From: Nevskiales bacterium
Lineage (GTDB): Bacteria; Pseudomonadota; Gammaproteobacteria; Nevskiales; Nevskiaceae
Direction: 5' to 3'
Assembly: GCA_028698335.1 (NCBI GenBank)
Contig: JAQVDP010000012.1
Location: 62,001 to 126,000, forward strand
Length of the DNA stretch: 64,000 nucleotides
Positions 8,469 to 15,087 of this stretch are shown here, one piece after another (positions within the stretch are counted from its first letter, which is position 1; every line of letters begins with the position of its first letter). A program made the translations under genes and the position numbers. The notes beneath the pieces were generated by a model. The model was given only the letters and a program-made list of their open reading frames with translations. It ran no database searches and was not told the DNA's origin.

Positions 8469-8481
8469 CGCCCTTGGTCGA
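8469..8481. promoter_or_regulatory. Putative CrbR box between the two kinase operons
   Basis: The 13 bases CGCCCTTGGTCGA are identical to the reverse complement of 15074-15086 in the acs/porin intergenic region. The site lies about 80 bases upstream of the 62-residue membrane protein gene and about 150 bases upstream of the CrbS-type gene. GGTCGAC follows immediately. Recurrence in two acetate-related control regions, with a looser copy at 1944-1990, suggests a shared regulator. CrbR is the inferred candidate. Confidence 0.45.
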
Positions 8482-8630
8482 GGTCGACGCCGGACCGGCT
8501 TGCCGTAAACTCGGACGGATGCCAACAGACGGGCGCACGACGCCCCGCCGGAGGAGCCCGCACCGCATGCCAGCCGCCGTACCGTCCACCGCGCCGCCTC
8601 GGCGCCGCGCGCGTCCGCGGAACTAGCGCC

Positions 8631-11600
8631 GTGCTGCCCGGCTGGTTGCTGCTGCTGCTGTCGGCGGGATACGTCGGCCTGCTGTTCGCGGTCGCGTACT
8701 GGGGCGACCGCCGCGCCGCGCTGACGGGGCGACCGCAGGCTCGGCCCCTGACCTACAGCCTCGCCCTCGCGGTGTACTGCACGTCCTGGACCTTCTACGG
8801 CGCGGTCGGTCGGGCCGCCGAACGCGGCTGGGACTTCCTGCCGATCTATCTCGGTCCGATCATGGTGTTCCTGTTCGGCGCGCCGCTGCTCGAGCGTCTG
8901 GTCCTGATGTGCCGGCGCCACAACATCACCTCGATCGCCGACTTCGTCGGAGCCCGCTACGGCCGGCGCCAGTCGCTCGCCGCACTGGTCGCGGTGATCG
9001 CCATGGTCGGCGTGCTGCCGTACCTGTCCCTGCAGCTCAAGGCCGTCGCGATCTCGCTGGAGGTGCTTGCGGTCCCCGACAGCGGCCCGCGTGGCGTGTT
9101 CGGCGACGGGGCGCTCGTCACCGCGGTGATGCTGGCGATCTTCGCGATCCTGTTCGGCACCCGCCAGGTGTCCTCGAACGAACGCCACGACGGCCTGCTG
9201 CTGGCGGTCGCGTTCGAGTCCGTGGTCAAGCTCGGTGCCTTCGTCGCGATCGGCCTGTACGCCGCGTACGGGGTCTTCGACGGCGTCGGCAGTGCTTTGT
9301 CCGCGGCGCTGGCGCAGCCACAGGTCACCGAGGCAATGGCACGGCCGGAATGGATGACCGGCTTTCTGGCGCAGACGGTGCTGGCGATGGCGGCGATCCT
9401 GTGCCTGCCGCGTCAGTTCCAGGTCACCGTGGTCGAGAACGGCGGGCGCTCCGAGCTGCGCAGCGCGCGCTGGATCTTCCCGATCTATCTGGTGCTGATC
9501 TCGCTGCTGGTGCTGCCGATCGCCGGCGCCGGCGCGGTCAGCCTCGGCCCCGAGGTCTCACCCGACAGCTACGTGCTGAGCCTGCCGCTGAGCCAGGGGC
9601 ATACCGATCTGGCGCTGTTCGCGTTCATCGGCGGATTCTCGGCGGCCACCAGCATGGTCATCGTCTCGACCGTGGCGCTGTCGACGATGCTGAGCAACGA
9701 GCTGGTGATCCCGCTGCTGCTGCGCTGGCAACCGCTCGGCCTGGCCCGGCGTCCCGACCTGTCCGGCCTGATCAAGACCGCGCGCCGGATCAGCATCGTG
9801 GTCCTGCTGACGCTGGCGTATCTGTATACCCGCTTCGCCGCCGAGGGGTCGCTGGCGTCGATCGGGCTGCTGTCGTTCGCTGCGGTCCTGCAGTTCGCGC
9901 CGGCACTGATCGGCGGACTGTACTGGAAGCGCGGCACCCATCAGGGCGTGCTCGCCGGACTGATCGCCGGTTTCACCCTGTGGGGTTACACGCTGATGCT
10001 GCCGACGCTGGCCGGCACCGATTCGGCCCTGGTCACGCTCGGCCCCGGCGGCATCGGCTGGCTGCGTCCACACGCACTGTTCGGCATCGACTGGCTCGAC
10101 CCGGTCACCCACGGCACCATCTGGAGCCTGGCCGCCAACCTGCTCGGCTACATCGGCGGCTCGCGCTGGTTCGCCCCCGGCCTGAGCGACCACCTGCACG
10201 CGATCCGCTTCATCGGCGAGGCCGAACCCCAGCAGCAGCAGCGCCCGAGCACCACCGGCACCGCGCTGGTCGGCGATGTCCGCGCGCTGCTGGAACGCTT
10301 CTTCGGCGCCGGGCGCGCCGCGCAACTGCTCGGCGACTACTCGACCCGCGCCCGGGTGCAGCTGCTCGATCGCGAACGCGCGACCCCGGAACTGGTGCGC
10401 TACTGCGAACGCCTGCTCGCGGGCGCGCTCGGCGCCTCCAGCGCGCGCGTGGTGATGGCGTCGATGCTGCGCGGTCGCGACATGCAGCTCGAGGATGTCA
10501 TCCAGCTGCTCGACGAGACCTCGCATGCGCTGCAGTTCTCGCGCGAGCTGCTGCAGGCGGCGCTCGAACACCTGTCGCTGGGCGTCAGCGTGGTCGACAG
10601 CGAGCTGCGACTGGTCGCCTGGAACCGGCGCTACGTCGAATTGTTCGAGTACCCCGAGGACCTGGTTTCGCAGGGTGTGCCGATCGAGCGGCTGATCCGC
10701 CACAACGCGCGCCAGGGCCTGCTCGGTGACGGCAACATCGAGGCGCTGGTCGAACGCCGCCTCGAACACATGCGTGCCGGCAACGCCTACGAGCACGAGC
10801 GCACGATGCCGGACGGATCGGTGATCCAGATCCGCGGCAACCCGATGCCCGGCGGCGGCTTCGTCAGCAGCTATACGGATGTCACCGCCTACAAGCGCGC
10901 CGAGCGGCGCCTCCAGGAACTCGCCGACACGCTGGAACAGCGCGTCCGCGAACGCACCGAGGAGGTCTCGCACGTCGCCGCCGAACTGGCGATCGCCAAG
11001 AGCGCGGCCGACCGCGCCAATGCCGCCAAGACCCGCTTCCTCGCCGCCGCGTCGCACGATCTGGTCCAGCCGATCAGCGCGGCGCGCCTGTTCCTCGCGT
11101 CGTTCGACCCGGAGCATGCCGATCCGAAGCAGGCCATGCTGGTCCGCAACGTCGAGGGCGCACTGTCCGCCGCGGAGAAACTGCTGGCCGCGCTGCTGGA
11201 TATCTCGCGCCTGGACGCCGGCGCACTGCCGGTCAAGTGCGAGCACGTCCGCCTGCGCAGCGTGCTCGAACCGCTCGCCAATGAATTCGCCGCGCTGGGC
11301 CGGGAACAGGGGCTGCGCTTCCGTCACGTTCCCTGTGAACAGGTGGTCTACACCGATCCGGCCCTGCTGCGCCGTATCGTCCAGAACTTCCTGTCCAACG
11401 CGCTGCGCTATACCGAGCGCGGCCGCGTGCTGCTCGGCTGCCGGCGCCAGGGCAGCACCATCCGCATCGAGATCTGGGACACCGGCCCCGGGATCCCGCC
11501 GTCGAAACAGCAGGAGATCTTCGAGGAATTCCGGCGCCTGCGCAGCCAGGACGCACGGGGGGAAAGCGGACTCGGACTCGGACTTGCGATCGCGGAGCGT

Positions 11601-13019: not shown

Positions 13020-14981
13020 TCAGGCGGCCTGATCCTGGGCGCTCTTGCGGGTGCCGATCAGGTGATCGACCACGGCCGGATCGGCCAGCGTCGAGGTATC
13101 GCCAAGCGTATCGAACTCATTGGCGGCGATCTTGCGCAGGATGCGGCGCATGATCTTGCCGGAGCGTGTCTTCGGCAGGCTCGGCGCCCACTGGATCACG
13201 TCCGGGGCGGCGATCGGGCCGATCTCCTTGCGCACGTGCACGACCAGCTCCTTGCGCAACTCCTCGCTGGCCTCGACGCCGAGCTTGAGCGTCACATAGG
13301 CGAAGATGCCCTGCCCCTTGATGTCGTGCGGGCACCCGACCACCGCCGCCTCCGCGACGGCCGCGTGCAGCACCAGGGCCGACTCGACTTCCGCCGTGCC
13401 CATGCGATGACCGGAGACGTTGATGACGTCGTCGACACGGCCGGTGATCCAGTAGTAGCCGTCGGCGTCGCGGCGCGCGCCGTCGCCGGTGAAGTAGACG
13501 TTGTCGTAGGTCGAGAAGTAGGTCTGTTCGAAGCGCGGGTGATCACCGTAGACCGTGCGCATCTGTCCCGGCCAGGAATCGAGCAGCACGAGATTGCCCT
13601 CGCAGGCGCCTTCGAGCACGCGACCATCGGCGTCGACGATCGCCGGCTGCACCCCGAAGAACGGCTTGCAGGCGGACCCCGGCTTGAGTGCCGTCGCGCC
13701 CGGCAGCGGCGTGATGAGGATGCCGCCGGTCTCGGTCTGCCACCAGGTGTCGACGATCGGGCAGCGCTGTTCGCCGACGACACGGTAGTACCACTCCCAG
13801 GCCTCCGGATTGATCGGCTCGCCGACGGTCCCGAGCAGCTTGAGGCTGGCCCGGCTGGTCCGTCGCACCGGCTCCTCGCCCTCGCGCATCAGGGCACGGA
13901 TCGCGGTCGGCGCGGTGTAGCAGATGTTGACCTTGTGCTTGTCGACGACCTGCCAGAACCGCGACGCGTCGGGATAGTTCGGCACGCCCTCGAACATCAG
14001 CGTGGTCGCGCCGTTGGCCAGCGGCCCGTACACCACGTAGCTGTGCCCGGTCACCCAGCCGACATCGGCGGTACACCAGTAGACGTCGCCATCGTGATAG
14101 TCGAACACGTACTGGTGCGTCATCGCCGCGTACAGCAGATAGCCGCCCGAGGTGTGCAGCACCCCCTTGGGCTTGCCGGTCGAACCGGAGGTGTAGAGGA
14201 TGAACAACGGATCCTCGGCGTTCATCGCCTCGGGCTCGCAGCGCGCCGGCTGAGCCGCCACCTGATCGTGGTACCAGAGATCGCGCTCGTTGTCCCAGTC
14301 GATCCATCCGCCGGTGCGCTTGACCACCATCACGTGCTCGACCGAATCGGTCCCGGGGCGCCGCAACGCCTCGTCGACATTGGCCTTCAACGGCACCTTG
14401 CGTCCGCCGCGCAGCCCCTCGTCGGCGGTGATGACGAGCTTCGAACCACAATCCTCGATGCGCCCGGCCAGGGCGTCGGGGGAGAAGCCACCGAACACCA
14501 CCGAGTGCACCGCACCGATGCGGGCGCAGGCCAGCATCGCAACGGCCGCTTCCGGAATCATCGGCAGATAGAGGGTGATGCGGTCGCCGCGCTTGACGCC
14601 GAGCGCCCGCATCGCGTTGGCCAGGCGGCTGACTTCGCCATGCAGCTCGCGATAGCTGATGTGACGCGACTCCTTCGGGTCATCGCCTTCCCAGATGATC
14701 GCGGTCTGATCGCCACGCTCGGCCAGATGCCGGTCCAGGCAGTTGGCACTGACATTGAGCGTGCCGTCCTCGAACCAGCGGATCGACACCGCATTGCGCG
14801 CGAACGAGACGTTCTTGACCTTGCTGTACGGACGGATCCAGTCGAGACGCTTGCCGTGCTCGCCCCAGAAACCTTCGCTGTCCTCGACCGACTGGCGATA
14901 CATCTGCTCGTAGCGCTCGGCGTTGACCCACGCGCGCTCGGACCAGTTCGGCGGAACAGGATAGGTTTTGGATTCTGACAT
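13020..14981 (-). CDS. acs: Acetyl-CoA synthetase (AMP-forming)
   Basis: The 653-residue enzyme converts acetate, ATP and CoA into acetyl-CoA through acetyl-AMP. It is the high-affinity route for acetate scavenging. Visible family motifs include [11 protein letters not shown] (ATP binding), [10 protein letters not shown] with the tryptophan that limits the pocket to acetate, and [11 protein letters not shown] with K609, the lysine that is acetylated to switch the enzyme off in homologues. ATG 14981 follows GTGGAGAACGTC. An upstream in-frame GTG would add only four residues. The divergent DcaP-like porin shares its control region, which holds two copies of a palindromic site. The location next to crbR supports acetate-switch control. 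Confidence 0.96.
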
Positions 14982-15042
14982 GACGTTCTCCACGGCAATG
15001 AATGGCTGTACCGATTGTCACCAGCGTCGCCGCCCGGCCCCA

Positions 15043-15087
15043 TTCGACCATGGTCGAAAAGCCTCATTCAGTTCGACCAAGGGCGAA
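15043..15087. promoter_or_regulatory. Two tandem palindromic sites in the acs/porin divergent region
   Basis: Bases 15043-15058 form the perfect 16-bp palindrome TTCGACCATGGTCGAA. Bases 15072-15087 (TTCGACCAAGGGCGAA) are an imperfect second copy, 29 bases away. The sites centre about 70 and 98 bases upstream of the acs start and about 113 and 84 upstream of the porin start, fitting an activator or shared operator. Part of the second copy recurs exactly at 8469-8481. CrbR is the inferred binder. Confidence 0.6.

What the first reader, a model, noticed from the sequence alone, without database searches (positions are those of the whole stretch)
8469..15087. A shared 13-bp site links the symporter-kinase operon, acs and the porin: candidate CrbR box
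CGCCCTTGGTCGA at 8469-8481 is identical to the reverse complement of 15074-15086 in the acs/porin intergenic region. There the site is part of one of two tandem copies of TTCGACC(A/T)nGGnCGAA. A 13-base identity in two short control regions of functionally linked genes is unlikely to be chance. The placement is about 70-100 bases upstream of acs and about 80 upstream of the symporter-kinase operon, which suits a LuxR-type activator such as the adjacent CrbR.
Basis: partly seen in the sequence, partly recalled or inferred. Interest (0 to 1): 0.7.

Follow-up and report, generated by a model that had tools for sequence, protein, structure and literature searches.

The report
CrbR boxes control an acetate-use locus
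Short mirror-image DNA sites next to several acetate-use genes look like docking sites for the neighbouring switch protein CrbR, mostly at a fixed distance from the gene's start signal; this extends a switch already known in related bacteria to a porin and to a second transporter-sensor operon.

Summary
CGCCCTTGGTCGA is at 8469-8481, its reverse complement at 15073-15085 (reader one base off); the 13-mer occurs only twice in the genome, both here. That identity alone has chance odds of 0.3-0.6% per pair of regions.

The sites match the published CrbR-dependent ACTU motif (PMC5715377). Over 41 promoters the -10 score peaks only at 23 nt past the box, the published position.

Box presence at acs tracks CrbR (14 of 27 loci against 0 of 12), but all 14 come from two other families, so this test is confounded by descent.

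The 8467 site is weakest: good leftward in the relatives' model, poor with a cross-genus matrix, degenerate in the nearest relative. CrbR binding is not shown. A new member of a known kind; porin and second symporter-kinase are new predicted targets.

The parts
15043..15058 (-). CrbR/ACTU box for acs, TTCGACCATGGTCGAA, predicted -51 to -36
   Evidence: rank 1; 29.7 bits towards acs; predicted -10 GACAAT 23 nt downstream
15072..15087 (+). CrbR/ACTU box for the porin, TTCGACCAAGGGCGAA, predicted -51 to -36
   Evidence: 30.2 bits, rank 1; weak predicted -10 CACAGT 23 nt downstream; similar hexamers there in family porin promoters
8467..8482 (-).
   Evidence: 22.5 bits leftward (rank 3), 13.1 rightward (rank 6); GATGGT and TAAACT each 23 nt away; Markov expectation 0.25 and about 41 per genome. 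Cross-genus matrix: rank 13 rightward, 78 leftward
1944..1959 (-).
   Evidence: 19.6 bits, rank 4; -10 TAGATT 23 nt downstream; same box type and spacing in L051 and L053
1978..1993 (-). Second, upstream box of the DUF4212-ActP promoter, TACGACCAAAGTCGCG, 34 bp from the first
   Evidence: tandem pairs 33-35 bp apart also in L051, L053, L061
3..1595 (-). ActP-type sodium:solute symporter (SSF), runs off the window
   Evidence: PF00474, 2.8e-55
1608..1874 (-). DUF4212 protein, small symporter partner
   Evidence: PF13937, 3.9e-36
2015..3085 (-). DUF294 putative nucleotidyltransferase, last gene of the leftward operon
   Evidence: PF03445, PF10335
3085..5142 (-). Exonuclease-domain protein with a PAS-like stretch (PAS below its cut-off)
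   Evidence: PF00929, 6.5e-33; PAS_4 22.1 bits, cut-off 23.1
5142..5522 (-). Stand-alone receiver (REC) protein
   Evidence: PF00072
5519..8194 (-). Second symporter-kinase (SK2): CrbS-like N-terminal part fused to HisKA-HATPase, no C-terminal REC
   Evidence: 48% to the window's CrbS over query residues 3-644
8202..8390 (-). 62-aa small hydrophobic ORF heading the SK2 operon
   Evidence: no Pfam family
8631..12131 (+). CrbS-like hybrid kinase (PAS, HisKA, HATPase, REC)
12205..12903 (-). CrbR/ErdR-like LuxR-type response regulator, presumed to bind the boxes
   Evidence: best NCBIfam hit ErdR, 257.8 bits, below its 390 cut-off
13020..14981 (-). acs, acetate--CoA ligase
   Evidence: TIGR02188, 1034.5 bits, cut-off 724.95
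15164..16399 (+). DcaP-type outer-membrane porin
   Evidence: PF19577, 1.2e-18

Best explanation
The shared element is the CrbR operator, the published ACTU box. CrbR, phosphorylated through the symporter-type kinase CrbS when acetate is to be used, binds 16-bp inverted repeats that end at about position -36, so it stands in for a -35 element and recruits RNA polymerase to the -10 hexamer 23 nt further on. One box drives acs, one the divergent porin, a tandem pair the DUF4212-ActP symporter, and a weaker box at 8467-8482 drives the leftward operon (small ORF, second symporter-kinase, REC, exonuclease, DUF294) and perhaps also crbS. Shown by sequence: box identity, positions, spacing to -10-like hexamers, conservation in relatives. 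Inferred: that CrbR is the protein that binds, that it activates, that acetate is the signal, and the transcription start sites.
For: ACTU sequences and their -52 to -36 position. Matrix from 43 acs promoters of other genera (started from a typed seed): 15043 first, 15072 next, then 1944 and 1978. Model from 27 relatives' promoters without the window or G004: top four oriented hits are porin, acs, 8467- and 1944-; best hit away from these boxes 11.6 bits. Markov expectation per genome: 0 at 25 bits or more, 0.25 at 22.5, 2.25 at 19.6. Scan of 22 loci, each left out of its own model: of 84 hits of 14 bits or more, 2 lie inside a mapped gene, 5 far from any mapped gene, the rest at the control regions of acs, acs2, porin, DUF4212, crbR, crbS or the transporter gene divergent from crbS (identity of that gene). 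Over 41 promoters, boxes chosen without regard to the -10, the mean -10 score is 0.16 at offset 23 against -3.13 at the next best; 23 is the best single offset in 18 of 41. Phyletic: 14 of 27 acs loci from 24 CrbR-bearing genomes score 17.9 bits or more, 0 of 12 from CrbR-lacking ones. For 8467: blocks shared with G004; in P. putida ErdR binds the pp_0354 and actP-I promoters in EMSA (PMC8402216 passages), and the exonuclease gene pp_0353 is called a target (PMC9927547 passages), as the leftward operon carries an exonuclease and a DUF294 gene.
Against: No binding or expression data for this organism. CrbR misses NCBIfam's ErdR cut-off. The phyletic test is confounded by descent: the 14 positives are 12 genomes of family f6 and 2 of f3, while none of the 13 loci from the window's own family f1 in that set reaches 17.9 (one has 12.2), although CrbR hits exist there; those acs genes are paralogues of 53-57% identity away from the compared crbR or in genomes whose kinase match lacks the symporter part. 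The 27 training promoters were picked by hand after the 23-nt rule was seen, and of the crbS promoters only two that fit were used. The 8467 box is 11 of 14 on the consensus, rank 13 rightward and 78 leftward with the cross-genus matrix, degenerate in G004 (below 14 bits), and no box of 14 bits or more precedes the SK2 operon in L063 or the exonuclease gene in L059 or L061. crbS promoters as a group show no peak at 23. Porin -10 elements are weak. Xanthomonad promoters mostly do not keep 23 nt. Off-locus sites reach similar scores to actP: L232 19.5 and L231 18.4 bits. In P. aeruginosa most tested ErdR-bound genes rose in the erdR mutant, so activation is not guaranteed.
Confidence: 0.8

Rival explanations
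1. The acs, porin and actP boxes are real, but the 8467 match is a chance look-alike and the symporter-kinase operon is not in the regulon.
For: 13-bp identity of two such regions arises in 0.3-0.6% of comparisons; with the cross-genus matrix the site is only rank 13 rightward and 78 leftward; it is degenerate in G004 and no box of 14 bits or more precedes the related operons in L059, L061 or L063.
Against: 22.5 bits in the window-left-out model, third of all positions, about 1.4e-5 expected per 240-bp region; a -10-like hexamer at exactly 23 nt on both sides; blocks shared with G004.
Confidence: 0.33
2. The 8467 box serves crbS (autoregulation) rather than the leftward operon.
For: TAAACT lies 23 nt to its right; the cross-genus matrix prefers the rightward reading; crbS-upstream regions of 6 of 15 loci, the window included, hold a box at p of 0.03 or less, five of them with no SK2 operon next door; P. 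fluorescens crbS has a predicted ACTU site, q=0.6.
Against: Rightward score is 13.1 bits against 22.5 leftward; several relatives' boxes there fit the divergent transporter gene as well or better; crbS promoters show no peak at 23 nt.
Confidence: 0.3
3. Another regulator, not CrbR, binds these inverted repeats.
For: No binding data; CrbR is below the ErdR cut-off; the phyletic test is confounded by descent.
Against: Physical linkage of the boxes to crbR across the family; in P. fluorescens activation by CrbR needs the same motif, also when tested in E. coli.
Confidence: 0.12
4. The tandem boxes act by repression or looping between the divergent promoters rather than by activation.
For: Box spacings fall on one helical face (17, 28-29 or 39 bp in 16 of 17 pairs under 40 bp apart; the species are related, so these are not independent); ErdR lowers most tested targets in P. 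aeruginosa.
Against: The 23-nt spacing to the -10 is what an activator standing in for a -35 element would need; ACTU is required for acs activation in P. fluorescens.
Confidence: 0.12

Closest known systems
[quoted passage not shown] passages and section 16 read)
   Same: Same imperfect inverted repeat, same targets acs and an actP-type symporter, same position at -52 to -36, CrbR as activator
   Different: Here a DcaP-type porin and a second symporter-kinase operon also carry boxes, and acs and porin share one control region with two phased boxes; in that paper the word porin occurs once, in a reference
MxtR/ErdR regulon of Pseudomonas putida KT2440 (PMC8402216, PMC9927547; passages read)
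   Same: ErdR binds the actP-I and pp_0354 promoters; pp_0353 is a putative exonuclease gene; here an exonuclease and a DUF294 gene follow a box
   Different: Here they sit in one operon with a symporter-kinase and a REC protein; in P. putida no ACTU box or ErdR binding was found at acsA-I
CbrA of the CbrA/B system (Pseudomonas)
   Same: SK2 resembles CbrA in layout as recalled (symporter-like part plus kinase, no fused receiver), and a small ORF precedes it as cbrX precedes cbrA (abstract of PMC6591292 in the listing)
   Different: The neighbouring partner is a stand-alone REC protein, not an NtrC-type CbrB (recalled); homology to CbrA was not tested

Membership tests
ACTU motif (CrbR box) | About 16-17 bp imperfect inverted repeat matching the acs-promoter consensus | tested here: met
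   matrix from 43 other-genus acs promoters ranks 15043 and 15072 first, then 1944 and 1978. The 8467 site is only rank 13 (rightward) there; it is 5th as a box and 3rd as a promoter (leftward)
ACTU motif (CrbR box) | Lies at -52 to -36 from the transcription start | tested here: inconclusive
   Start sites are not mapped here; predicted -10 hexamers 23 nt past the box would put it at -51 to -36
ACTU motif (CrbR box) | Upstream of acs where CrbS/R exists, absent where it does not | tested here: inconclusive
   14 of 27 loci against 0 of 12, but positives are from families f6 and f3 only, negatives mostly from f1; G014, first counted as lacking CrbR, has a crbR fragment beside acs and does have a box
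ACTU motif (CrbR box) | CrbR binds and activates through it | not testable with these tools
   Needs protein and reporter work
CrbR/ErdR response regulator | REC + LuxR-type HTH, best family ErdR | tested here: met
   ErdR is the top NCBIfam hit, 257.8 bits
CrbR/ErdR response regulator | Passes NCBIfam NF041830 cut-off (390 bits) | tested here: not met
   so 'CrbR-like' is meant throughout, not ErdR in the strict NCBIfam sense
CrbS symporter-type hybrid kinase | SLC5 + STAC + PAS + HisKA + HATPase + REC | tested here: inconclusive
   One search finds PAS, HisKA, HATPase, REC; Pfam SSF was not reached at 1e-3 and STAC was not tested; the N-terminal part matches SK2

The most novel reading that the evidence does not exclude
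The whole 15-kb locus is one CrbR-run acetate module in which the same operator, 23 nt from the -10, replaces the -35 element at each box-bearing transcription unit: uptake porin, inner-membrane symporter, acetate activation, and a second symporter-kinase with its own receiver, possibly also crbS. CrbR would thus switch on a second sensory system of the same build, a kinase cascade, and would co-induce an outer-membrane porin, a link whose boxes persist in Xanthomonas and Stenotrophomonas.
Probability: 0.42. Interest if true: 0.55.

Novelty: new member of a known kind. Interest (0 to 1): 0.42.

Why it matters
It gives the CrbR operator of this family a precise geometry (box, 23 nt, -10) that can be searched for in GC-rich genomes where the loose motif drowns in background. 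It predicts targets not named in the CrbS/R passages read here: a DcaP-type porin, with boxes also in Xanthomonas and Stenotrophomonas, and a second symporter-kinase operon. That makes 'how does acetate cross the outer membrane under CrbS/R control' directly testable.

Tried and rejected
A loose 14-base core genome-wide is not above its reversed control, so it cannot define the regulon. Of its 31 off-locus matches 12 were read in context: 11 lie in some ORF of 80 aa or more (which in this GC-rich DNA need not be real), one, C16:186572, in none. Two look promoter-like: C42:17302 (23 nt then TAGACT, between two genes, before a cysteine-dioxygenase-like gene) and C16:186572 (23 nt then CAGTAT, 13.8 bits). 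The other 19 were not read in that test. A plain TTGACA/TATAAT scan of 12850-15250 found nothing, which fits an activator-dependent promoter but proves nothing. That acs and crbR form one operon stays open: a G+C-rich inverted repeat without a T run lies between them. A simple consensus score finds a box at p of 0.05 or less in 25 of 52 acs upstream regions, fewer than the refined matrix suggests. In one search the automatic choice took an overlapping register for the window's crbS row and probably a wrong box in some others; all rows were kept in the mean. Xanthomonad acs promoters seem to have the -10 about 34 nt from the box, and of seven porin-side boxes there only L153 has a hexamer of the family's type at 23 nt, so 23 nt is not universal.

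Literature: the listings of searches showed no paper on a porin as CrbR/ErdR target; one search listed 20 of 37 papers, 15 of 2,429, 12 of 123, and most subscription papers are not held. PMC5436829 holds none of motif, palindrom, EMSA, inverted, bind at a word start. PMC5343134 (passages) has nothing on CrbR.

Changed on checking: confidence of the best explanation lowered from 0.83 to 0.80 and the novel case from 0.45 to 0.42, because the phyletic control proved confounded by family and the cross-genus matrix ranks 8467 leftward only 78th.
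Full report
What is there. The 13-mer and its inverted copy are in the window as described, bar one base in the second coordinate. The acs-porin intergenic region holds two 16-bp inverted repeats: TTCGACCATGGTCGAA (15043-15058) and TTCGACCAAGGGCGAA (15072-15087). The third site is 8467-8482, between a leftward operon whose first ORF starts at 8390 and rightward crbS. Genome-wide the 13-mer occurs twice and the strict 16-mer pattern at two places, all in this locus.

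Genes. Leftward from 8390: a 62-aa ORF; a symporter-type kinase (SK2, 5519-8194); a lone REC protein; an exonuclease-domain protein with a PAS-like stretch; a DUF294 nucleotidyltransferase; then, after a gap, DUF4212 and an ActP-type SSF symporter that runs off the window. Rightward: crbS. Leftward: acs, then crbR. Rightward: a DcaP-type porin.

Is it the known motif? Sepulveda and Lupas (PMC5715377; passages and section 16 read) found an imperfect inverted repeat, the ACTU motif, at -52 to -36 of P. fluorescens acs. It is required for CrbR-dependent activation and was found in 91 of 112 promoters of regulon homologues. I built a matrix from 43 acs promoters of other genera (loci). Over the window it ranks 15043 first (19.5 bits), 15072 next (14.0), then a pair at 1944 and 1978 (11.6, 11.4) upstream of DUF4212-ActP. 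The 8467 site is rank 13 rightward (5.4 bits) and rank 78 leftward (0.1).

Anatomy. Reading outward, a -10-like hexamer lies exactly 23 nt from the box for acs (GACAAT), porin (CACAGT), actP (TAGATT) and, at 8467, on both sides: TAAACT towards crbS and GATGGT towards SK2. Over 41 promoters of the window and its relatives, with boxes chosen without regard to the -10, the mean -10 score peaks at offset 23 alone (0.16; next best -3.13), and 23 is the best offset in 18 of 41 rows (acs 4 of 8, porin 6 of 17, DUF4212 6 of 9, crbS 2 of 7). This would put the box at -51 to -36, the published place. The crbS group has no peak there.

Promoter model. Trained on 27 promoters of relatives (acs 6, porin 14, actP 5, crbS 2; picked by hand after the 23-nt rule was seen, leaving out several rows whose box or -10 did not fit, among them most crbS rows), without the window or its nearest relative G004, the model (box + 2 nt + -10 at 23) ranks 15072+ 30.2, 15043- 29.7, 8467- 22.5 and 1944- 19.6 as the top four of both strands of 64 kb. 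8467+ scores 13.1 (rank 6); the best hit away from these boxes is 11.6. Markov sequence of genome size gives none at 25 or more, 0.25 at 22.5, 2.25 at 19.6 and about 41 at 13.1. So acs and porin are secure, 8467 leftward and actP good, and the crbS direction weak. Among 54 other stretches of this genome, fetched because they match the motif loosely, two score close to actP (L232 19.5, L231 18.4). Scanned with each locus left out of its own model, 22 loci give 84 hits of 14 bits or more: 2 inside a mapped gene, 5 far from any mapped gene, the rest at control regions of acs, acs2, porin, DUF4212, crbR, crbS or the transporter gene divergent from crbS. Only genes found by tblastn were mapped.

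Conservation. Two box-like sequences could be placed in the acs- or crbR-porin region of the window and of 14 family relatives, but the weaker of the two scores only 8-9 of 14 in L059, L063 and L064, and in L055 and L056 the best reaches 10 (p about 0.15). In Stenotrophomonas, Xanthomonas and Pseudoxanthomonas, 7 of 8 loci have an acs-side and a porin-side box (L139 lacks a clear second one). Spacings under 40 bp are 17, 28-29 or 39 in 16 of 17 pairs, one helical face; the exception is 23 bp in L062, and L052 has an alternative first box of equal score. In relatives that lack acs at this spot, the acs-side box stands before crbR itself (L053, L054, L058, L060), which suggests autoregulation there. 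The 8467 region aligns with G004: box, TGGAC and both -10 blocks are recognisable, but G004's box is degenerate, scores below 14, and stands 25 nt by my count from the crbS-side hexamer. Full-length SK2 relatives at E up to 1e-100 were found in 2 of 60 relatives, G011 (60%) and G039 (49%); the SK2 operon of G011 has no box of 14 bits or more (L063), and the best before SK2 of G039 is 10 of 14.

Control. I searched acs in 17 genomes without a CrbR hit better than E 1e-33; 16 had a match and 13 loci of 50% identity or more were scored. Twelve score 5.2 bits or less; the 13th, G014, holds a crbR fragment next to acs at a contig end and has a box of 24.5. Of 25 CrbR-bearing genomes asked, 27 acs loci from 24 were scored (weaker paralogues, and G030 with only a 42% match, dropped): 14 score 17.9 or more, one 12.2, twelve under 2. 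The 14 are 12 genomes of family f6 and 2 of f3; the 13 from the window's family f1 include no strong box. In f1 the boxes are at the acs genes adjacent to crbR, which were already in the other sets. So this control agrees with CrbR but does not separate it from descent.

Mechanism. CrbR-P binding up to -36 would stand in for a -35 element (no TTGACA-type promoter was found in 12850-15250). In Pseudomonas, ErdR binds the actP-I, scpC and pp_0354 promoters (PMC8402216 passages) and 13 of 15 P. aeruginosa promoters (PMC9927353 section 8). The exonuclease gene pp_0353 and the CBS-domain gene pp_0354 are described as targets (PMC9927547 passages), which fits the exonuclease and DUF294 genes behind the 8467 box. 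In P. aeruginosa most tested targets rose without ErdR, so the sign of regulation should be measured.

Verdict. The element is a published motif in a new setting; the new points are the porin, the second symporter-kinase operon, the missed actP boxes, and the spacing that makes the motif searchable in GC-rich genomes.

Noticed in passing
L231:1501-1516 (G000:C42:17302): Box CTCGACCAAGGTCGCA, 23 nt, TAGACT in the gap before a cysteine-dioxygenase-like gene; a possible further CrbR target (18.4 bits).
   Followed up: partly
L232:1500-1515 (G000:C44:8699) and L236:1573-1588 (G000:C16:186572): Two more box-like sites, 19.5 and 13.8 bits in one direction; target genes not identified.
   Followed up: no
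5142-8390: Second symporter-type kinase with a small leader ORF and a lone receiver protein; full-length SK2 relatives in 2 of 60 related genomes.
   Followed up: partly
18025-20043: A second acetate--CoA ligase gene near acs; in several relatives its orthologue lies behind a box-preceded symporter or MFS transporter gene divergent from crbS.
   Followed up: partly
12955-12993: G+C-rich inverted repeat without a T run between acs and crbR; TAGACT lies just before the crbR ATG.
   Followed up: no
75-1601: The long + strand ORF lies antisense to the ActP-type symporter gene, which probably explains its tblastn matches in relatives.
   Followed up: yes
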